Source: Beta vulgaris subsp. vulgaris
Taxonomy: Eukaryota; Streptophyta; Magnoliopsida; Caryophyllales; Amaranthaceae
Direction of reading: 5' to 3'
Length of the DNA: 64,000 nucleotides
NCBI RefSeq assembly: GCF_026745355.1
Contig: NC_079207.1
Coordinates: 12,956,338 to 13,020,337 of the forward strand
The notes beneath the pieces are model-generated. The model was given only the letters and a program-made list of their open reading frames with translations, searched no databases and was not told the origin of the DNA. Position numbers and translations under genes: made by a program. Numbering within the stretch: position 1 is the first letter of the stretch; each line of letters begins with the position of its first letter. Below, piece after piece: positions 1 through 53,610 of this stretch.

Positions 1-1862
1 AGGAAACAGTGAAATACCCTCTGTCTGTAACACCACTTGACAAATGACTGAGCTTCCTCTTGTTATCGGATGCATTTGATGAGTGAACAAGTGAGCCGAA
101 AATGACAGCAATCAGAAAACATGCGACACCCGGAAAAAGAATGTCAGCCTTGTTAATCTTGTCATCCAGAAAATAGTTTAAGGTGGTGCCTGTACATGTA
201 AGTAGCAGATCATAGTGAGCATATGATACTAATAACTGAAGAATCTTTTAACTTGTAAAACAGAAGTGTTGAGTGAACAGCCAAGGCAAACTACCTATAA
301 CAACAGTAATGCTACTACTGACCACCTCTACAACTGATAACCCAACTAGAGCCCAAGCATATTGTGTGGATAGATTTCCAATACTGAGGACTACTCCACC
401 CGCCATTGCGAATAACACGGAGGGCCAATTATCCTGCAATGAACATCCTAAATAAGTATATAAATTAAACTATCACTAATTACAAATTTACAGTTGCTAA
501 ACACACTGATTTCTGTAAATATGAATATTGATACTGTAGTTGCCTAATTGATCTGTTTTTGAGCTTCTTAACTTGGTTGCATTTCCTAAGACATAACTTT
601 GCCATTAAATTGCATATAAATGTATAACTAAATAAAGTAATTTGTACGCATAAGACAAGGCAAAATGCGAATAACTGATATGTCCTGGCATAATTATACA
701 CTTGAATTAAAACCTAAATCATACCAGAACAGAAATGATAGTATAAAAAAGGACTTTCCTAGATTTATTTACCTAACCAACTTCATATACATAATACATC
801 TTATCCCCTTACGAATCTTCTAAGCATTGTACCCCCTCCATCACAAAAAATTGCTGACAATTAACACACTATTAAGAAGAGAGTAAACTAGATTGAACTC
901 ACACAAAGTAATAATGACACGCATTAAGTAGTGTGATTGAACCACACGCTAGTGGGAACACAAGCAAAAGTTACAAGAAGATGGAACATTACACACATAG
1001 TTATTTTGAGATGCTCAAAAATAAAAATGAGAAGGTAGATGTTCAATACTTCTATAATTGATCCCACCTCTTCCTCTACTCCCTCCCAACCTTGCCAAAT
1101 CTTCCTCGAGTAGTGATACATCCATCTAATGCATAGGCTCATCCCCTTCATATAATACTATGATAAAGACTCCAAACACTATAAGTAAGATATGAAAGGA
1201 GATATAATTAACCCTCTCATATGTAAGATGTAATAACATCATTGTCTTCTGCTTAGTTTTAGAACAAGAATCAAGCATGATACATGTCAATCTCTCGAAA
1301 AATTGTGCTTAAATTATTTGCGAAATATTCTGAAGAATACTAAAAATCTCAGCTAATCTTCCTCAATTACTTTTGATAAGTACTTTTATCAAGATTTTGA
1401 ATGAATATATACAATTACAAGTATTCAATCAGTTAAGGGAAGTGAAGTGGGAACTTCTTCTTTCTTTGCACATTGATCATTTGATCTCACATAAAACAGA
1501 ATACATAGTTCAACAAAAGTAAAACTACAGAATGCCAAATATTATCTACTTCTATTCTAAGTAATATTTGCAAATTTTATATCAAAAAAAAGCATAATGA
1601 AAGAAGAAAAGCATGTGAAAATAACCTGAGAAAGTTGGGTAATGAAATTAGGCATCCCAGGTTTGGCATCTCCCATCTGACCAAGAGTTAGAGCAATAAT
1701 CACAGCAGCCAAAAGATTGGTAATGGAGTAATCAAGATAAGTATGTTGAGGAAGACGGCCACGCCTTTCGAGGAAGGCTAATACAGCAGGCCATGTCCCC
1801 AAAAACAACAGAGACATCAGCATACATAATATTGCTCCTCCTTTGCTTTCCACCACAAACAT
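1..1862 (-). CDS. UPS: Ureide permease (UPS family), 5' part, cut by window edge
   Basis: A plasma-membrane or ER ureide permease (allantoin, uracil and related compounds in known plant members), only the first three coding exons being in the window: 1626-1862, 295-433 and 1-189, all with GT-AG junctions and compatible phases. The ATG is at 1862. Exon 1 encodes the family N-terminus (V-E-S-K-G-G-A, then a first membrane helix with L-G-T-W-P and E-R-R-G-R-L-P-Q-H-T-Y). Exon 2 encodes D-N-W-P-S-V-L-F-A-M-A-G-G-V. Exon 3 begins T-T-L-N-Y-F-L-D-D-K and runs off the left edge. The family is normally about 390-420 aa with about ten membrane helices; the central loop and the C-terminal half lie outside. 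The same exon plan is seen in the complete copy at 11759-14961, so the two are tandem paralogues. The family call is firm; the transported substrate is inferred. Confidence 0.9.
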
Positions 1863-2459
1863 TTCTAATCCACCAGATAAACTCCTCTCTGTTACCTTCT
1901 CAATTAATATTGTACTTGCTTCCCCAAACTCCTGATGATAATCACATATATATCATCAAATGAACAAACATTCATAATTCAGACAGAAAAAAAAATATAT
2001 TGAAATAATCATTATTTATTTTCTATATTTTTGGTGTTTCCACCAACAAAAAAAAAATCAATCTTGAAGTATACATATAACTTTAAAACACCCAATTGAG
2101 TTTTTTTTTTTTTCTTTGATAACATGCACCATGGTATAATAATTCAAAATAATAAAATAATGATGATAAATATAACTCCATATATTCAAGGACAAAGGAG
2201 AAACTTGCACCAGATCTTCAGAAAAATTAAACCAATAAAAGAAGTCAAACCCAGAACTGATGAACTCACCATCTTGAGCAACAATGAAAAGTGGATTTAC
2301 AATTTACATGATGAATCAATAATATTTTTCATGGTATTAAAGAGCCCCACAAAAAAGCGAGATGACATAATACTTTTGAGGAACAAATACAATACATCAA
2401 GTAACAACAAAAATGTCCATAAAAAAACAAACTTTAGAAAAATTACAGAGAAAGCTTAC

Positions 2460-6679: not shown

Positions 6680-7915
6680 ATACGGGACATCAAACAAGAT
6701 CATGATAATAAGAAACAGGATCGGAGGAAGAACAACAAATAGCACGACTAATTACATCATCAGGATTGCAGCCCACGTATATGATTGGCAAGTTTATCCA
6801 AGTTAAACTCAAGAAAATGAAATGTAAATGCATCTTGAGATTGCTGATGTACATGGCCATTCGCTATTAATTCTAGAGTACGGCTTCAAAGTCACAACTA
6901 TAGAAAGAAAGTTACTAATTCACCATTTATGTCTTTATGATATGAATGACAAGAACGTGGAAGAGTAACTTGCAATATGAACCAAAAGACTTTAACTTTG
7001 AATGATAGTACGTAGCAGAATTAATCCACCTAAAAGTATACTACATTTCAACAAATTCTATCTAAAACGATATTGAACGTGCCCTTTAGATCACCAAGTT
7101 CTATTAATTCTAGAATTGCAGTAACCCTGAGATCCATCATCAAGTTTTACCAAATGACATTACAACTAATGGAGTCACATCACAACATCTCTCTAACTCA
7201 TTGTTATGCCTTCTTCCTCATTCTTTCACTTCATCTTCATAAATAACCGCAATATTAATCTAAGCTAATGGAAGGTTCAGGTGAGACACTAGAATATCTT
7301 AAAGAAATTAAGAACTTCAATTTGATAGTCACACCAATTATCTATATGATGGAATATTGTAGATAATTGATTTCTGAACTAATAACCAGAAAGTTAATCA
7401 ATTAATAATTAAGAACCAAGCCATGAATAGTTAGAAATAAATTGTTGATGAGTTTATCAAGCCGGATAGAAGGCACGTATTAGGATATCATCTAAAATTC
7501 AAGATCTAAAAACTTGTAATTTACAAAAAAGCTTGATTTTGGCTGAAGAAAGTTCCATTAATCTGCCTAAGACAGAACTAATTTAAGGAAGGCTAGACTT
7601 AATTAAACTAACTGATTTTCCTAAAATATATTGGAGTTGTAATAATCATTCATTAACTTTTCGTTTGACATTTACACCACATTAAATAAAGGTTAATTGA
7701 AAGGTTTAGAAGAAGAACTTAAACTTTCCATTACTTTGAAACAGTTGCCAAATAATACATATTTGATAAAGATAAACTACTACATGATGGTATCAGTGTA
7801 TGACTATACATAACTAATTTCTGATCGAATAAACAGGAAACTTAATCAATTAATCAAGAAATATCTGATGATGAACAATTCAAACTACTCATCCTATGTT
7901 ATTAGATGCAGGAGT
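6680..7915. other. Intergenic, no gene recognised
   Basis: About 1.2 kb of AT-rich sequence downstream (in the minus sense) of the heptad-repeat gene. It contains two loosely similar segments around 7260-7400 and 7740-7880 (CTAATAACCAG / CTGATCGAATAAACAGG, each followed by AATCAATTAAT), perhaps an old duplication. No coding signal seen. Confidence 0.4.
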
Positions 7916-9391
7916 TTAGCTGTCAGACCATGTCGAAAACCTTGGTGAGTTCGAAGACACTGAAGAAGCAGGCCATTGTGGCACGTACATTGGAGAAGAC
8001 GGCACGTATGGAGGTGACTCTGGCGAGTACTCAGGAGACATCGGTGTATATAATGGCGATCCTGGTGAGTATTCAGAGGATTCTGAAGTGTACTCAGGAG
8101 ACGACGGTGTATAGTATGGCGATTTCGGCGAGTACTCAGGAGACTCTGGCGTGTACTCAGAAGACATCGGTGTATATGATGGCGATCCTGGTGAGTATTC
8201 AGAGGATTCTAAAGTGTACTCAGGAGACGAGGGTGTATAGTATGGCGATTTCGGCGAGTACTCAGGAGACTCTTTCGTGTACTCAGAAAACATCGGTGTA
8301 TATGATGGCGATCCTGGTGAGTATTCAAAGGATTCTGAAGTGTACTCAGGAGACGACGGTGTATAGTATGGCGATTGCGGCGAGTACTCAGGAGACTCTG
8401 GCGTGTACTCAGAAGACATCGGTGTATATGATGGCGATCCTGGTGAGTTTTCAGGGGATTCTAGCGTGTACTCAGAAGACGACGGTGTATATGGCGATTG
8501 CGGCGAGTACTCAGGAGACTCTGGCATGAACTCAGGAGACTCTGGCGTGTACTCAGAAGACATCGGCGTATATGATGGCGATCCTGGTGAGTATTCAGAG
8601 GATTCTGAAGTGTACTCAGGAGACGACGGTGTATTGTATGGTGATTGCGGCGAGTACTCAGGAGACTCTGGCATGTACTCAAAAGACATCGGTTTATATG
8701 ATGGCGATCCTGGTGAGTTTTCAGGGGATTCTAGAGTGTACTCAGAAGACAACGGTGTATATGGCGATTGCGCCGAGTACTCAGGAGACTCTGGCGTGTA
8801 CTCAGAAGACATCAGTGTATATGATGGCGATCCTGGTGAGTATTCAGGGGATTCTGGCGTGTACTCAGGAGACAAAGGTGTATAGTATGGCGATTGAAGC
8901 GAGTACTCAGGAGAGTCTGGCGTGTACTCAGGTGTACATAATGGCGATTGTGGCGAGTACTCAGGAGACAAAGGTGTATAGTACAGCGATTGAGGCGAGT
9001 AAGTAATCTTGAAGGGATTGTATATGAAGTATTCCGGAGTTGGTGAAGAAGGCGTATATGAAGGCGACTGCGGAGAGTATTCAGAAGACATGTATGGCGG
9101 TGGTGAATCACGTAAGTAATCTTCAAGGGACTGTAGTGAGTATTCTGGAGTTGAAGGAGTGTATAAAGGTGATTCTCGTGAGTATTCGGGAGACATGTAT
9201 GGTGGTGGTGAATCACGTAAGTAATCTTCAAGGGACTGTAGTGAGTATTCTGAAGTTGTTGGAGTGTATAAAGGTGATGATTCTGGTGAGTATTCGGGAG
9301 ATGGCGGCGGCGAGTACGACGACGATGATGATGATGGTGTATAGAAAGGAGATGAAGGTGAGTATTGTGGAGATGAAGGAGAATTTTCCAT
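7916..9391 (-). CDS. RNA polymerase II CTD-like heptad-repeat protein, stand-alone
   Basis: An intronless 491-aa frame on the minus strand. The ATG at 9391 is chosen because it has a strong context (GCAATGG) and lies about 65-75 bp downstream of a TATA box; the frame stays open upstream only to non-ATG codons. Apart from a short tail (ending R-F-S-T-W-S-D-S), nearly the whole protein is heptads Y-(S/T)-P-x-S-(P/S)-(E/S/Y). The consensus positions Y1, S2, P3, S5 and P6 match the RPB1 CTD heptad, but position 7 is mostly Glu. From about residue 160 the heptads form blocks of six (42 aa). Near the N-terminus a 35-aa module containing Y-S-L-Q-S-L-E-D-Y-L-R-D-S-P-P-P-Y occurs twice. I see no signal peptide, membrane helix, zinc finger, polymerase domain or clear nuclear localisation signal. 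Very few Lys/Arg make it strongly acidic. An extensin-like wall protein is the main alternative, but SPPPP motifs and a signal peptide are missing. Function unknown. Confidence 0.75.
   Translation of the reverse strand: MENSPSSPQYSPSSPFYTPSSSSSSYSPPPSPEYSPESSPLYTPTTSEYSLQSLEDYLRDSPPPYMSPEYSRESPLYTPSTPEYSLQSLEDYLRDSPPPYMSSEYSPQSPSYTPSSPTPEYFIYNPFKITYSPQSLYYTPLSPEYSPQSPLCTPEYTPDSPEYSLQSPYYTPLSPEYTPESPEYSPGSPSYTLMSSEYTPESPEYSAQSPYTPLSSEYTLESPENSPGSPSYKPMSFEYMPESPEYSPQSPYNTPSSPEYTSESSEYSPGSPSYTPMSSEYTPESPEFMPESPEYSPQSPYTPSSSEYTLESPENSPGSPSYTPMSSEYTPESPEYSPQSPYYTPSSPEYTSESFEYSPGSPSYTPMFSEYTKESPEYSPKSPYYTPSSPEYTLESSEYSPGSPSYTPMSSEYTPESPEYSPKSPYYTPSSPEYTSESSEYSPGSPLYTPMSPEYSPESPPYVPSSPMYVPQWPASSVSSNSPRFSTWSDS
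8000..8900. repeat. 126-bp coding tandem repeat
   Basis: The anchor word GCGATCCTGG starts at 8056, 8182, 8308, 8434, 8578, 8704 and 8827. The spacings are 126, 126, 126, 144, 126 and 123 bp, all multiples of three. The 144-bp interval reflects one extra heptad and one lost codon. The array lies wholly within the heptad-repeat gene. Confidence 0.95.
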
Positions 9392-9455
9392 TGCTCTTGC
9401 TTCTATTTTCTTGAAGATCAATTAAATGTAGACAACAAATTTGAGGTGCTTCTTG

Positions 9456-9464
9456 TTATATATA
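9456..9464 (-). promoter_or_regulatory. TATA box of the heptad-repeat gene
   Basis: TATATATAA on the minus strand, in the context CTATATATAAC. With a usual 25-35 bp spacing, transcription would start near 9430 and give a leader of about 40 nt before the ATG at 9391. This rules against using codons further upstream as the start. Confidence 0.55.
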
Positions 9465-9626
9465 GTTTTTCTAAAGGGCTTGTTTACTCGGTCCAAAAGA
9501 TTAACAAAGGTGAATTCTGTTTGTATTCGGATTTCTAGAATCCTTGCAAATCAATTCATTCAACAAAAACAAACAAAAACTTGCACATCAAATCGCTGTA
9601 AACGAATTAAGCTCTTAATAGACTTA

Positions 9627-9881
9627 GGGCCTGTTCTCTTCGGCATAAAACAGCTGAACTGAACTGAACTGAACTGAACTGAACTGAATTGAATTAAATT
9701 GAATTAATATAAATTAAATTGAATTAAATTGAATGTAATAAATATATAAATATTATTTTAAACAATAATAATATGAATATTAAATAATAATTATAATGAT
9801 AAGTAATAATAATGAATAATAATAATAATAGTATTTTGGATATTTTTAAATGATAGTTATAAATAATATTAATAATCATAA

Positions 9882-9917
<36 letters not shown>

Positions 9918-10472
9918 TAATGATAATAATGATAATTAATAATAATTATTTTATATTATTTGTATTAATATATTAATACTTGATGATGATATATAATAAC
10001 AATAATATCTAAGAAGTAAACTAATATTACTATTTTAATAATTAGATTTAATAATATAAAAATATTTAGTAATAAAAATAATCATTGGGTTGGACCGCGA
10101 AAATTACATCATAATACGTCTTGACGCGATTTGATTGGTTTATGGGCTGAAAAAGTGGGTTTATTTGTGCTTTGACCTAAACCATGTTCCTCCTAATAAT
10201 AATAGTAATAATAATGAGTAAAGGTATAATAAACAAATAATAATACTTAATAGTAATGATATATATTTAAATAATAATAATAATAAGAGTAATTAGTAGA
10301 ATAAATTATACCAACATAATAATAATATTTAACAAAATGTCAAAATGATTATAAAAGAATGGAGCAGAGCTGAACTGAACTGAACTGAACTGAACTTATT
10401 GGAGCTGAACTGAACTGAACTTATTAGAGCTGAATTGAACTGAACTGAAAATAAGCTGGAGAGAACAGGCCC
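9627..10472. mobile_element. Harbinger/Tourist-type MITE with AACTG-repeat subterminal tracts
   Basis: Terminal inverted repeats GGGCCTGTTCTCTT (left) and GAGAGAACAGGCCC (right) are flanked by TTA on both sides (9624-9626 and 10473-10475), the usual PIF/Harbinger target. Just inside each end is a run of the pentamer GAACT (GAACTGAACTGAACT). The core is AT-rich with AAT/ATT trinucleotide repeats. 846 bp, no coding capacity. Confidence 0.8.
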
Positions 10473-10698
10473 TTACTAGAGTATAGAGTTCTAATGTTAA
10501 TAAACTTGATTTTTACCAATTAGTAATCATGTGATACTTGATATTTAATTCTAATCCCTTCCTTAATACAACTCTTTTTTTACCTCTTTGATGATAAAAC
10601 TTGTGATATCATTACTATGAAATATTGTAGTGAGTAATAATTTAATAATACCATTTTTTTAAATCATAAAAAGAAATAAAAATGTTGTGTATAAAGTA

Positions 10699-11758: not shown

Positions 11759-14700
11759 TTATGACTTTCTGTGCCCTGATGATGCCATAAGGATTCCAAC
11801 TGCGATGATGAACATAGATAACATGGTAATAAGTAGTATGTATGTCTTTCTTGATGATTTCCTGTACTCTCCAAAAGCAACTACACCCCAAAAGGTGCTC
11901 ACCAGTGGAAGTGCCTGATAGTTTATACACATCGAAATCACGAATGAGAAGTTACTATTAGATCACAATTAGAGCGAGCTAATAACAAGAAACCATATAT
12001 AAAAACACCGAGTCTTTTAGACTGACCGATTGATGTTGGAGTGACTTGTTATAGTATCAAAGGGTGACTTTTTATATTATATTTGGTTGAACTTTGTATC
12101 ATGTTTTGAGTGACTTTAAGTCATGCAAGGGTGACATATTGAAGAAATGAAAGTTTTGATATATTGCCTGACCTGAACAGCATCAGCTGCAGCATATCCT
12201 GCAGCCTGACCTCCCATGAACTGAAGACCATTTCCAAATCCACAAAGCATGCCAGCCAAAAGTGCCCATCCTCGTCCATTCCAGTCCGCAAAGTAGGCAT
12301 GAAATGATGACTTTGGCAGGTCCAAAACAGGGTGAGATAGGAAGGTGATGTTCAAGATCAGTGCAATCGCAAATGAGGAAATGGAGAAGTAGAAGAAAGC
12401 AGTATAAACAACCAAATGAGGCACCCCTTCTCTCAAGCGATGAAATTGGTCATTGGTTGCTACGTTAAACAGAGGAGAGAATAGAGAATAGCAAAAACCA
12501 GCAAAAAAAGTTATTGCCAAACCAACCCAAATACTCCTGCCAAACACCTGCAGAAAGAATTATTTACAAGTGAGATAATCGGAACATATGTTGAATCATT
12601 AGTGATCACTGGTTAGTGCATATCAAGAAGACTTAACAGCTTACCTTAATTGATCTTCTTTCCTCAAGCTTAATAAGGAACTTTGCAGTCCCAAACTCCG
12701 GCTCCTTTGTACTTTCATTTGCCTTTTCAAGGTCCATAGGAACTGAAAGTAAAGAGGAAGTTGATAAATTCTAGTCGGCCTAGTCCTAACCTAGTGACAT
12801 ACTCTATATGTAACAGAAACTGTCCAAACTTCTCAACCTTTATGAGCAGATGCTCCACCTGAGGCTGGTTTATCGCTTTCCCTGTCAAAATTCGATTTTG
12901 GTGGTGTCACAAGTCTACAGCACCAGAAGCAACCGCACAAATCCAAAGGTTGTTAATTACTACTACATCTCATCATACCAAATTGTAGCCGTGCATTACG
13001 TTTGAGAAAGACTATTTGGTGGATTTACCAAAAAAACGCCTTCCTGACGTGTTCAGTGGAGTGCAATTCACCAAATAGCCAAACTTCGATGTTTCACAAA
13101 TACGAAGAAATAGTTTCTCGTGCAAATAAATGAGTTTCTTATCATAGCAAACAGTGTGTATATACCTTTCCTCTTCTTCAAGCTTACTTTCCAAATTTTT
13201 GAGTTTTGCAGTATTATCCACGTCATTAGATTTGTGAACAGAAGAACCCAGAAAAACTGCTATCAGAAAACATCCTACTCCTGGGAAAAGTATTTCTGCT
13301 CTATTAATTCTGCCATCCAGGAAATAGTTTACTGTGGTCCCTGTTAACGCATAAAAGATAAAGTATCAGTTATAATTGTTCAGTGTTCACTTCAACACAA
13401 GAGAATTAATATCCCATAAAAATAAGTTTTATTTGACAATACCCATTTTCAATCAGTGGAAACCAATAAGAATCAGAGAAGATAAATATCAGTTATTCAC
13501 GTTTAATCAGCAAAACTCGGTCTCAACCAGTAAAAATAAATTTCTATCAGTAAAAAGACCATTTGAAGTGGAGAGGACCTAATCTTTTAAAAATAGACCC
13601 TTTATAAATAGTTTGTGGTTATGGTATATAGAAATTTGATCATAAAACATTACTGTATAAGGATCGTGACAAATACTCAAATCTATTAGTTACAGACGAA
13701 GGGAGTAATATGGATACTGTCAATGAAAAGAAGAGAAAACAAACCTATTACAACGGTAATGCTAGCACTAACAACCTCAACAACCGATAAGCCGACTAAA
13801 GCCATAGCATATTGTATAGATAGATTCCCTACACTAAGAGCAACTCCACCAGCCATAGCGAACAACACAGAAGGCCAATTGTCTTGAACCTATTACATTG
13901 AAAAGTATTAATCAAGATCGTTCATAATTTAAGATTCACTGACAGGATTACTGTTGAAAAATGGTTTACATGATTTGGGAAACATTGATCCTAAGTACAT
14001 TGGAGCCAGGTTTGCTTAAGCCTTAGGCTCCGTTTGGTAGGGTGTAAAACATTTTCAGTGTAAAATGATTTTCATGGAAAATAATTTACAATGGAAAACA
14101 CAATTCCAAAATTAGTTTTTCCTTGTTTGGTTCCATGTAAGAAAAATAATGAAATGAAACAAATATGAAAGGGGAAGTAAGGAGGTAGTGAGAGGATTGT
14201 GTAAGAGAGATAAGGAAATTAGTTTTCCCTTCATTTTGAAGGGAAAATGGTTTTCCATCATTAGGAGTGTAATTTTACTCCAAGGGAAAATGGTTTTACA
14301 CTCCTTTGCCAACCAAACAATGTAAAACTGAAAATAGAGGAAAACGGTTTTCCGGGAAAACGTTTTACGCCCTACCAAACGGAGCCTTAATGTCAACCAT
14401 TACCATTATTTATTACTTCATCTAGTATATAAACAGAAAAAGTCGATACCATTTTAACTTTTTATTACCACCAACCACTGAACCACATAAGCCGTTGGTT
14501 CATCTAATCAGAATGTTGGTTTCATTCAATTCGGGATCAAAGTTCAACAGAAATCCTGTAACAACAACTTTGAAATTGCTGATAGGTTACTAAACCTACC
14601 AAGACACTGAATCTAAAGAATTCTTGGTTTTATAAGGCAATTAAAGGGTGGATGTGAACATCACGAATAACTTAATTTCTCCTTACTCGAGAACATAAAT

Positions 14701-14961
14701 TAAAAGCAATTGAAAGTTTGTTACCTGATACAGTTGGTTCAAGAAATTTGGCATGCTTGGTTTGCTCTCTCCAATCTCACCTAACGTGAGTGCGATAAAC
14801 ATAGCAGCTAAGAGATTAGTAATAGCGTAGTCAAGATAAGTATGCTGAGGAAGGCGTCCACGCCTTTCGAGGTAAGCCAAAATAGCAGGCCATGTCCCCA
14901 AGAAGAACAGAGAGAGCAGCATGCAAAATATAGCTCCTCCTTTGCTCTCTATCACATACAT
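11759..14961 (-). CDS. UPS: Ureide permease (UPS family), complete
   Basis: A membrane permease for ureides and related nitrogen-rich heterocycles (known role of plant UPS proteins in allantoin/uracil transport). Seven coding exons on the minus strand: 14725-14961, 13745-13889, 13166-13340, 12838-12914, 12645-12742, 12173-12547 and 11759-11914. They total 1263 bp (420 aa) with all phases consistent. The true start is ATG 14961 (M-Y-V-I-E-S-K-G-G), since the upstream in-frame codons include only GTG just after a splice acceptor. Exon 6 holds N-D-Q-F-H, W-N-G-R-G-W and G-F-G-N-G-L-Q-F-M-G-G-Q-A-A-G-Y-A-A-A-D-A-V-Q. Exon 7 ends S-S-G-H-R-K-S. The charged loop (exons 3-5) separates two membrane halves. 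Exon 2 takes an acceptor six bases upstream of that used by the left paralogue, adding V-Q before D-N-W-P. Intron 1 carries a MITE. Substrate preference cannot be read from sequence. Confidence 0.93.
14026..14386. mobile_element. Harbinger/Tourist-type MITE in UPS intron 1
   Basis: 361 bp with inverted ends GGCTCCGTTTGGTAGGG and CCCTACCAAACGGAGCC, flanked by TTA (14023-14025, 14387-14389). The interior is also partly self-complementary (GGAAAATGGTTTT words on both sides). It is non-coding and wholly intronic, absent from the corresponding intron of the left paralogue as far as I can see. Confidence 0.85.
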
Positions 14962-14973
14962 CTTTAATTCCAC

Positions 14974-16300
14974 CTGCCAAAATCCTCTAAATGATGAAAG
15001 AAAGTTAGGAAGGGCATCAAGATTCAGTTTCTTGTTATCCCTTTAATATTAATCCGACGACACTAAAAAATACTAATCTTCTACCATACAAATACATGTG
15101 ATCAGTATTATACTATTATCAATTATCATACATTACTCATACTCAGGTACTCTTATTGGACATGAGTATGCATCTAAGTGTCCCACTCGACTAAGTTTCA
15201 AGGTGTCCATACTCATACCGGAGTGGCTAGGCTCTGACAGAGATACTTGAGGTAAAATTATGAGTCCAAGTACCATAAATTCTATTGTCTACCGTAACTG
15301 CCAGTTTGATAGATAATGAATGTAAGTAAAAAGCTCCAAGTATGTGTTATCCTCCTTTAATTTTCATTTCCATAGATCTAAAACAGTAATGAGCAATGAT
15401 GGAAATGTAAGAAGAGAAAAACATAGTTAAGGGTAGATTTGCATTACCATTACCATTACCATTACCATGAATATCAACATGAAAATTTTCTAGCAACATT
15501 ACAAACAAATCTATTATCATTACTGCGACCAGCTACCGCCTTTATAAACAAGCTGTAACTTGTAAGTATATTTTAAATACAGTAATCCACTTATAAAGAA
15601 TTAGTATTGATCTAGCAGATCATACAGATTTCATATCATAAAGTTCTTCAAACTAGAAAAGTCAAGATTTGTTGCAAAAAGAGCCCATTATGGTTCAAGC
15701 AAAATCAAAACCGATGATAGCAAAACAAATGAAACAGAACTAAGAATCATTAAAAAGTTTCAGTCTTTTTTACAAAAGAACATACAACATACTTATTTCT
15801 AATTTGACCCAAATCTTGTAATGAAAATGCTGATCTTCAAAATGCATCGATGATACAGATTATTAAGCTTAAACAAACCCATTATTCCTATAAATTTAAA
15901 ATAAAATGCAAAGCTCATACATTTATCAGGTCAACACCTCCATAAATTCAGGCAAACAAGGATCCAAACAAAAATCCCAGAAAACTCACTAAAAACAAAA
16001 TACACCCTTTTAAGTTTTAAGCAACAAAACTAAAAGAAACAAATCTGAGAAAAAAAAGGAGAGAGAAAAAGTTGAAAGTTGCATACCAAATCACCAATTG
16101 GTGAAGCAGATGATTCCAGCTCCAGGCTCCAAAGAAAAATAACCCAATTTAACACTAATTTCTATCAAACTCTCAGATTCATTCAATGTTCTAAAACTAT
16201 ACAGAATCATGGGAATCCTTAAGAATCACAAATACCCAGAAACAGATATTTTGTTGCTGATAATGGTAGTAACCAACCTCGTATTATGATACTTTGGCAG
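14974..16300 (-). other. 5' UTR intron and probable leader exon of the complete UPS gene
   Basis: On the minus strand a donor (GATTTG|GTATGC) at 16087 and an acceptor (TTGGCAG) at 14974 bracket about 1.1 kb of AT-rich intron. The acceptor lies 12 bp upstream of the ATG at 14961. The leader exon would lie at 16087 to about 16300. Inferred from splice consensus only. Confidence 0.45.
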
Positions 16301-52611: not shown

Positions 52612-53610
52612 NNNNNNNNNNNNNNNNNNNNNNNNNNNNNNNNNNNNNNNNNNNNNNNNNNNNNNNNNNNNNNNNNNNNNNNNNNNNNNNNNNNNNNNNN
52701 NNNNNNNNNNNNNNNNNNNNNNNNNNNNNNNNNNNNNNNNNNNNNNNNNNNNNNNNNNNNNNNNNNNNNNNNNNNNNNNNNNNNNNNNNNNNNNNNNNNN
52801 NNNNNNNNNNNNNNNNNNNNNNNNNNNNNNNNNNNNNNNNNNNNNNNNNNNNNNNNNNNNNNNNNNNNNNNNNNNNNNNNNNNNNNNNNNNNNNNNNNNN
52901 NNNNNNNNNNNNNNNNNNNNNNNNNNNNNNNNNNNNNNNNNNNNNNNNNNNNNNNNNNNNNNNNNNNNNNNNNNNNNNNNNNNNNNNNNNNNNNNNNNNN
53001 NNNNNNNNNNNNNNNNNNNNNNNNNNNNNNNNNNNNNNNNNNNNNNNNNNNNNNNNNNNNNNNNNNNNNNNNNNNNNNNNNNNNNNNNNNNNNNNNNNNN
53101 NNNNNNNNNNNNNNNNNNNNNNNNNNNNNNNNNNNNNNNNNNNNNNNNNNNNNNNNNNNNNNNNNNNNNNNNNNNNNNNNNNNNNNNNNNNNNNNNNNNN
53201 NNNNNNNNNNNNNNNNNNNNNNNNNNNNNNNNNNNNNNNNNNNNNNNNNNNNNNNNNNNNNNNNNNNNNNNNNNNNNNNNNNNNNNNNNNNNNNNNNNNN
53301 NNNNNNNNNNNNNNNNNNNNNNNNNNNNNNNNNNNNNNNNNNNNNNNNNNNNNNNNNNNNNNNNNNNNNNNNNNNNNNNNNNNNNNNNNNNNNNNNNNNN
53401 NNNNNNNNNNNNNNNNNNNNNNNNNNNNNNNNNNNNNNNNNNNNNNNNNNNNNNNNNNNNNNNNNNNNNNNNNNNNNNNNNNNNNNNNNNNNNNNNNNNN
53501 NNNNNNNNNNNNNNNNNNNNNNNNNNNNNNNNNNNNNNNNNNNNNNNNNNNNNNNNNNNNNNNNNNNNNNNNNNNNNNNNNNNNNNNNNNNNNNNNNNNN
53601 NNNNNNNNNN
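52612..53610. other. Assembly gap (N run)
   Basis: About 1 kb of N. The long open frames reported across it are artefacts of N translation. Left flank is LINE, right flank is CACTA-element sequence, so the LINE/CACTA junction is hidden. Confidence 0.99.

What the first reader, a model, noticed from the sequence alone, without database searches (positions are those of the whole stretch)
7916..9391. Stand-alone protein mimicking the RNA polymerase II C-terminal domain
The sequence shows a 491-aa intronless frame that is nearly all tyrosine-led heptads with Y1, S/T2, P3, S5 and P6 in CTD register, roughly 60 units, with a TATA box and a good ATG context but no polymerase sequence. Established knowledge: RPB1 CTD heptads (YSPTSPS) are phosphorylated at S2 and S5 and recruit RNA-processing and chromatin factors. 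Inference: a free CTD-like polypeptide could act as a decoy or scaffold for CTD kinases or CTD-binding factors, or form condensates. Glu at position 7 in many units would mimic constitutive negative charge. A structural or wall protein is the alternative.
Basis: partly seen in the sequence, partly recalled or inferred. Interest (0 to 1): 0.88.

Follow-up and report, generated by a model that had tools for sequence, protein, structure and literature searches.

The report
Stand-alone polymerase-tail-like plant protein family
A beet-like plant genome carries a small family of genes whose proteins look almost entirely like the repetitive tail of RNA polymerase II but contain no polymerase; they may tie up or gather the enzymes that read that tail.

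Summary
Minus-strand ORF 9391..7916 encodes 491 aa of Tyr-led heptads; 28 have Y1, S/T2, P3, S/T5 and P6 all in register (shuffle mean 0.34, maximum 3 of 1000). A TATA box lies 74 nt upstream; no signal peptide or polymerase domain was found. It is one of at least five paralogous single-exon ORFs in the same 569-Mb genome, sharing proximal promoter, 5' leader and N-terminal module. All ten N-terminal paralogue pairs have dN/dS 0.23-0.54. It is not a simple copy of the CTD: the genome's own RPB1 has YSPTSPS and Thr4; the family has no YSPTSPS, no Thr4 in full heptads and often Glu before Tyr. Seven grass proteins show the same signature with a different tail. One paralogue is probably the published sugar-beet model Bv9_227300_uapa, 'RPB1-like', with RefBeet RNA evidence but no transcripts in shoot apex or leaf sets. 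The newest repeats of the window copy look neutral, and expression of this copy is unknown. Best mechanism: a free, acidic analogue of the phosphorylated CTD, decoy or scaffold for CTD kinases or readers. That is inferred, not shown.

The parts
7916..9391 (-). Single-exon ORF, 491 aa, CTD-like heptad protein (copy C9w of the family)
   Evidence: 100% self match at G000:C9:12964256-12965728
9457..9465 (-). TATA box CTATATATA, 74 nt upstream of the ATG
   Evidence: a TATA-type motif is aligned in C6 and C12a and degraded in C12b and C12c
9392..9626 (-). Proximal promoter and 5' leader homologous to those of the four paralogues (0.87-0.93 identity over aligned bases for nine of ten pairs, 0.97 for C12b-C12c)
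9194..9250 (-). First copy of non-heptad module EYSLQSLEDYLRDSPPPYM (residues 48-66); a form of this module is present in all five paralogues
9089..9145 (-). Second copy of the same module (residues 83-101), within a 105-bp tandem duplication
8999..9034 (-). Diverged third copy read in a shifted frame between two cancelling indels (EYFIYNPFKITY, residues 120-131)
8072..8842 (-). Six 42-aa super-repeats (126-bp unit; one copy has an extra heptad, two copies lack one codon), residues 184-440; neutral-like pN = pS
7919..8008 (-). C-terminal tail YVPSSPMYVPQWPASSVSSNSPRFSTWSDS (residues 462-491), not seen in the paralogues' tails
9627..10472 (.). Inverted-repeat transposon without a long ORF (MITE-like) inserted in the upstream flank, TAA target duplication; empty site upstream of C12a
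248..1952 (-). Flanking gene: ureide permease paralogue B (exons seen; probably continues past the window edge)
   Evidence: PF07168 on 1557-1952
11759..15042 (-). Flanking gene: ureide permease paralogue A
   Evidence: PF07168 on 12116-12559; homologues of a joined-exon model

Best explanation
The ORF is a real gene, one of at least five paralogues in a beet-like genome. They encode signal-less, strongly acidic, presumably disordered polypeptides made almost wholly of CTD-like heptads of the type Y-[ST]-P-x-S-P-[E/x]. Shown: the family, its shared promoter and N-terminal module, coding constraint there, and a heptad signature distinct from the genome's own RPB1 CTD. Inferred: the protein acts as a free analogue of the phosphorylated Pol II CTD. 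Its [ST]-P dipeptides would be acceptors for proline-directed CTD kinases, and the Glu just before Tyr supplies the negative charge that phospho-CTD readers look for ([DE]-Y-[ST]-P resembles the acidic-then-Tyr layout of yeast CTD mimics). It would titrate or locally gather CTD kinases, phosphatases or CID/WW-type readers, with repeat number setting capacity.
For: Five ORFs with the same start, module and proximal promoter. N-terminal dN/dS 0.23-0.54 in 10 of 10 pairs, pooled pN 0.084 against pS 0.231; of four pairs tested, Fisher p in the true frame is 0.0034 (C9w-C6), 0.0066 (C12a-C12c), 0.0042 (C9w-C12a) and 0.22 (C12b-C12c). Six 3-nt insertions in the coding part of C12c against C12b, all in frame; indels upstream are 7, 1, 5 and 3 nt. 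Two cancelling indels keep the window frame open. Across 64 heptads amino-acid change relative to silent change is lowest at Y1 (0.096/1.213) and S5 (0.117/0.706), then P3 (0.248/0.642). 20 [DE]Y[STN]P motifs against shuffle mean 0.7, maximum 6 of 2000; 11-20 per paralogue, 0 in the own RPB1 CTD. No hydrophobic N-terminus, net charge -54. Solved chains that match are RPB1 / RNA polymerase chains, 14 of 15 distinct sequences, plus one labelled SAKeCEref. Pfam scores the Rpb1 C-terminal repeat above its cut-off in C12a (47.0 bits, 7 stretches). Precedents: PIE-1 and Pgc bind P-TEFb and keep it from the CTD (PMC2748068, passages); yeast CTD mimics carry acidic residues before Tyr (PMC7110113, passages).
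Against: No binding, location or phosphorylation data. The six newest 42-aa repeats show pN 0.069 against pS 0.071, with losses at Y1, P3, S5 and P6. At heptad level positions 2 and 6 (pN/pS ratio about 0.61 and 0.59) are hardly more constrained than 7 and 4 (0.62 and 0.68), and the silent count at Y1 exceeds 1, so this measure is rough. In one search only 6 of 10 pairs show triplet-only gaps in the first 130 coding bases; the others include gaps of 1, 2 or 4, some perhaps from the cut end. C6 has few Thr2/acid7 full heptads (0.14 each of 14) and no Pfam repeat match, and heptad-like sequence continues in another frame beyond its stop. Tails differ except in C12b and C12c, which end alike. The probable published paralogue was undetected in shoot-apex RNA-seq and leaf SuperSAGE sets and is stop-polymorphic. 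No basic cluster that would suggest a nuclear localisation signal. Antisense frame -1/1 also gave low Fisher values (0.025, 0.053, 0.053 in three pairs).
Confidence: 0.4

Rival explanations
1. Fast-evolving lineage-specific (orphan) family whose repeats expand by slippage and unequal exchange; the short N-terminal module is the working part or was so in the past, and the heptad array is largely passive in this copy.
For: ORF length varies from 220 to 491 aa; newest repeats neutral-like; tails differ; C6 ends in a shifted frame; probable paralogue with stop polymorphism and undetected transcripts in two data sets.
Against: Heptad-level constraint at Y1, S5 and P3; whole-ORF dN/dS 0.20-0.49 in 10 of 10 pairs, though repeat misalignment may bias this; proximal promoter conserved.
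Confidence: 0.3
2. Scaffold or sink for proline-directed kinases or WW/SH3-like partners outside transcription (cytosolic); the CTD likeness is convergence on an (S/T)P-Y linker.
For: 92 [ST]P sites, no NLS-like cluster, net charge -54; Thr2 and Glu7 differ from the true CTD.
Against: The 7-residue register is more than composition gives (shuffles keep composition and lose it).
Confidence: 0.2
3. Extensin-like or other tyrosine/proline-rich wall protein secreted through a missed upstream signal exon.
For: Tyr 13.8%, Pro 21.6%, Ser 26.9%; SPPP occurs 3 times; hydrophobic upstream frames start at 9879 (inside the transposon), 10654 and 11597, the one at 10654 with a counterpart in C12a.
Against: No hydrophobic N-terminus (maximum KD-11 in the first 60 residues -0.35), SPPPP 0, VYK 0, YxY 0; TATA and leader sit directly before the ATG; my pattern found the 10654-type frame within about 520 nt in C9w and C12a only, 2 of 5; acidic, whereas extensins are typically basic (recalled).
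Confidence: 0.06
4. A copied fragment or pseudogene of the RPB1 CTD.
For: Best PDB sequence hits are RPB1 CTDs; C12a passes Pfam's cut-off for the Rpb1 C-terminal repeat.
Against: Own RPB1 CTD: 14 YSPTSPS, T4 0.93, T2 0, acid7 0 in 27 full heptads; family: 0 YSPTSPS, T4 0; own promoter and N-terminal module. A very old CTD origin of the repeats is not excluded.
Confidence: 0.03

Closest known systems
[quoted passage not shown] passages and section 12 seen)
   Same: Similar size (235 aa; 223 in the mapping parents per its Table 1), no Arabidopsis hit, listed next to CURT1C; our C12a lies about 1.8 kb from CAAD-type exons that I take for CURT1C. C12a has His at 49 and 52; the reported variant is aa51 H/D, so the fit is loose.
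   Different: The window copy is twice as long, on another contig, between two ureide permease genes. The parts I saw list the model without any CTD analysis.
RPB1 C-terminal domain of RNA polymerase II
   Same: Tyr-led heptads with P3, S5 and P6 register.
   Different: No polymerase body, no YSPTSPS, no Thr4 and Thr2 in half of the 28 full heptads, Glu7 in 33 of 64.
Grass stand-alone heptad proteins (P0014 barley, P0022 and P0056 wheat, P0037 Aegilops, P0038 Miscanthus, P0040 Dichanthelium, P0050 Digitaria; names as the source gives them)
   Same: No polymerase body; in full heptads no Thr4, Thr2 0.73-1.0, acid7 0.33-0.62; 9-19 [DE]Y[STN]P each.
   Different: RRRHHPYQRS-type basic tail in 6 of 7 (P0050 ends within it) and other N-terminus; common descent with the beet family not shown (one search aligns repeats only).
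Yeast CTD mimics (Nrd1-interaction motifs of Trf4 and Sen1, CTD mimic of Mpp6)
   Same: Acidic residue(s) near a conserved Tyr in a disordered region (PMC7110113, passages).
   Different: Short motifs in larger proteins, not tens of repeats; binding shown there, not here.
PIE-1 / Pgc transcription repressors
   Same: Idea of a free protein that keeps P-TEFb from the CTD (PMC2748068, passages).
   Different: Animal germ-line proteins; not heptad arrays (recalled).

Membership tests
RPB1 (Pol II largest subunit) | Polymerase domains | tested here: not met
   Pfam 0 families at E<=10 for the window protein; the genome's own RPB1 exon at C9:68.59 Mb matches five Rpb1 families
RPB1 CTD | YSPTSPS consensus with Thr4 | tested here: not met
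   0 YSPTSPS; T4 0 in 28 full heptads
Pfam RNA_pol_Rpb1_R repeat (PF05001) | Score above the curated cut-off (20.3 bits) | tested here: inconclusive
   Window copy and C6: no match; C12b 19.1 and C12c 15.6 bits, below; C12a 47.0 bits, above
Beet stand-alone heptad family (this report) | Shared promoter, ME[NS]S start, SPEYSPE and DYL/HYL-DSP-PYMS-type module, in-frame heptad array | tested here: met
   5 of 5 loci, by which the family is defined
Grass stand-alone heptad family | Heptads without Thr4, with Thr2 and acid before Tyr | tested here: met
Grass stand-alone heptad family | C-terminal RRRHHPYQRS-type block | tested here: not met
CTD mimic (NIM type) | Acidic residue before Tyr followed by [S/T/N]-P | tested here: met
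   20 motifs, shuffle maximum 6 of 2000
CTD mimic (NIM type) | Binding to a CTD-interaction domain | not testable with these tools
   needs a binding assay
Extensin / HRGP wall protein | Signal peptide | tested here: not met
   hydropathy of the N-terminus only, no dedicated predictor; upstream frames
Extensin / HRGP wall protein | SPPPP and Tyr cross-link motifs (YxY, VYK) | tested here: not met
   SPPPP 0, VYK 0, YxY 0; SPPP occurs 3 times

The most novel reading that the evidence does not exclude
Some flowering plants carry dedicated free CTD-analogue proteins, built of acidic Y-[ST]-P-x-[ST]-P-[E/D] heptads, that act in trans as a tunable decoy or hub mimicking the phosphorylated Pol II tail; beet-lineage plants and grasses reached or kept the same design.
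Probability: 0.3. Interest if true: 0.85.

Novelty: new variant of a known kind. Interest (0 to 1): 0.6.

Why it matters
If the proteins bind CTD kinases or readers, plants would have a trans-acting dial on Pol II tail phosphorylation made of the tail's own code, with natural variation in repeat number. It would also give meaning to a plant gene model labelled 'RPB1-like' that lies inside a mapped sugar-beet bolting locus and was set aside there.

Tried and rejected
Region search with residues 28-132 found nothing at E<=10 among 1226 candidates. The full-length search found no close orthologue among 59 hits, but it scored only the 7992 candidates sharing most words, and its length filter (about 270-859 aa) excludes proteins the size of the 220-263 aa paralogues, so absence in other chenopods is NOT shown. 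Profile comparison of beet and grass families gave 99.3% probability but over 48 columns of repeats only, so I do not claim homology. Own-genome hits below the five loci and RPB1: three of the weak ones (C5:18.78, C10:48.15, C9:16.44 Mb) were opened and are TETKQSP-type repeats; the other weak rows were not opened. First dN/dS run wrongly included the terminal non-repeat unit; one search replaces it. One search used a concatenated protein file for tblastn, hydropathy and charge; one search replaces those parts (its DNA scans of upstream frames stand). No structure was predicted: a disordered repeat gives no useful model.

Literature: ten searches were answered (two of them listed nothing). Apart from PMC5107561 I saw in those listings no paper on a stand-alone plant CTD-like protein; most were seen only as titles and starts of abstracts. 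(PMC6681478, one passage) shows only an 'RPB1-like' abbreviation. (PMC11056954, one passage): a soybean gene labelled 'RPB1-like' that the authors identify as a CEP peptide gene, so the label is used loosely. PMC10002152, PMC11392391, PMC6401078 and PMC8389408, which also hold 'subunit RPB1-like', were not opened (animal subjects by title).

Full report
What is there. The reported frame lies on the minus strand, ATG 9391 to stop 7916, 491 aa. Serine, proline, tyrosine, glutamate and threonine make up 82% of it. A tiling against the CTD register gives 64 heptads. That count is not itself unusual (shuffles average 60.9), but the register is: 28 heptads meet Y1, S/T2, P3, S/T5 and P6 together against 0.34 on average and at most 3 in 1000 shuffles. 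The array has a 126-bp (42-aa, six-heptad) higher-order period in its second half and a 105-bp duplication in its first. A TATA box lies 74 nt before the ATG. Pfam finds nothing in the window copy. Of 15 distinct solved sequences that match, 14 are RPB1 / RNA polymerase chains and one is labelled SAKeCEref.

It is a family. The top hit of the neighbouring ureide permease is a Beta vulgaris protein: 82% identity, where my query lacks a middle exon, so gaps probably lower the figure. I take the plant to be beet or a close relative; that is inference. Protein searches of this genome find four further loci: C6:2.41 Mb (241 aa), C12:52.33 Mb (C12a, 263 aa), C12:51.00 Mb (C12b, 228 aa) and C12:51.22 Mb (C12c, 220 aa). 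The tool calls its counts lower bounds. They also find the genome's true RPB1 exon at C9:68.59 Mb, which matches five Rpb1 Pfam families including the C-terminal repeat. All five family ORFs start ME[NS]S, share SPSSP, PSPEYSPE and a DYL/HYL-DSP-PYMS-EYSPQS-type module, and share a proximal promoter and leader with 0.87-0.97 identity over aligned bases. The TATA box is present in C9w, C6 and C12a and degraded in C12b and C12c.

Coding constraint. In the N-terminal region all ten paralogue pairs have dN/dS 0.23-0.54, pooled pN 0.084 and pS 0.231. Of four pairs tested against other frames, three give true-frame Fisher p of 0.0034 (C9w-C6), 0.0066 (C12a-C12c) and 0.0042 (C9w-C12a), and one, C12b-C12c, is not significant (0.22). 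One antisense frame, -1/1, is also low in those three pairs (0.025, 0.053, 0.053), told as a caveat. C12c differs from C12b by six 3-nt insertions inside the coding part, all in frame, while indels upstream are 7, 1, 5 and 3 nt. Over the first 130 coding bases, 6 of 10 pairs have triplet-only gaps and 4 do not. In the window copy a diverged third module reads in a shifted frame between two cancelling indels. At heptad level Y1, S5 and P3 change least; positions 2 and 6 are hardly tighter than 4 and 7. Against this, the six youngest 42-aa repeats of the window copy show pN 0.069 and pS 0.071, with changes such as Y to N, P to L, P to K and S to F, so the newest array is not visibly under purifying selection.

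Not a simple copy of the CTD. Own RPB1 CTD: 27 full heptads, Thr4 0.93, Thr2 0, acidic-7 0, 14 YSPTSPS, no [DE]Y[STN]P. Family: Thr4 0 in all five, 0 YSPTSPS, 11-20 [DE]Y[STN]P; Thr2 0.5-0.89 and acidic-7 0.46-0.67 in four of five, C6 being 0.14 for both. Pfam's Rpb1 C-terminal repeat model nevertheless passes its cut-off in one of the five, C12a. Of the 59 database hits, seven, all grass proteins, have 9 or more [DE]Y[STN]P motifs; the next have 4 (P0045) and 3 (P0016), and the rest 0-2. The hits were gathered by words shared with the query, which biases them toward such motifs. The grass proteins share a basic C-terminal block (6 of 7; P0050 ends within it) that the beet family lacks. I treat the likeness as similar design, not proven descent.

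Literature. PMC5107561 (passages and section 12 seen; [quoted passage not shown] It has RNA evidence in RefBeet data, no transcripts detected in shoot-apex RNA-seq and leaf SuperSAGE data, and a stop polymorphism that shortens it slightly. C12a lies about 1.8 kb from CAAD-type exons (each below Pfam's cut-off alone, 50 bits when joined) that I take for CURT1C, so it is probably that gene. This is not proven: its His residues are at 49 and 52, not at the reported 51, and its length differs. The authors excluded the gene as BR1 candidate for lack of transcripts. Apart from this, my ten searches listed no paper that I recognised as being on such plant proteins. A soybean gene labelled 'RPB1-like' proved to be a CEP peptide gene (PMC11056954, one passage). 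Precedents for CTD mimicry come from passages on yeast NIMs (PMC7110113) and on PIE-1/Pgc (PMC2748068).

Mechanism. I commit to a free CTD analogue (0.4). Tyr1, Ser5 and Pro3 are kept, and Glu before Tyr gives a built-in negative charge like that of yeast CTD mimics, whose peptides bind the Nrd1 CID about 100-fold tighter than the phospho-Ser5 CTD. No step beyond sequence is shown. Main rival: a fast-evolving orphan family with a mostly passive array (0.3).

Noticed in passing
window 9627..10472: MITE-like element with GGGCCTGTTCTC inverted repeats, AACTGAA-rich ends and TAA target duplication, inserted about 235 nt upstream of the ATG; the empty site is seen upstream of C12a. AACTGAA-rich sequence also lies upstream of C6 (15 TTCAGTT in about 900 nt, 0 for C12a).
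   Followed up: partly
window 248..1952 and 11759..15042: Two tandem ureide permease paralogues on the minus strand flank the CTD-like gene.
   Followed up: partly
L011 4610..5272 (C12c) versus L010 (C12b): Six separate 3-nt insertions within a short stretch of coding sequence, all in frame; an odd pattern whose origin I did not establish.
   Followed up: partly
L012 4432..5278 and 7608..7823: C6 copy: the reading frame ends and heptad-like sequence continues in another frame; a CURT1C-like exon, recognised by eye only, lies upstream, which suggests a segmental copy of the C12a region.
   Followed up: partly
proteins P0016, P0023, P0048, P0058: Non-RPB1 proteins from unnamed sources carry CTD-like heptads; such heptads seem to recur outside RPB1.
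   Followed up: no
P0041 (Papaver armeniacum): A protein with RING-type Pfam domains and 5 YSPTSPS heptads in its N-terminal part.
   Followed up: no
window 52612..53610: A run of unread bases (N) interrupts the window.
   Followed up: no
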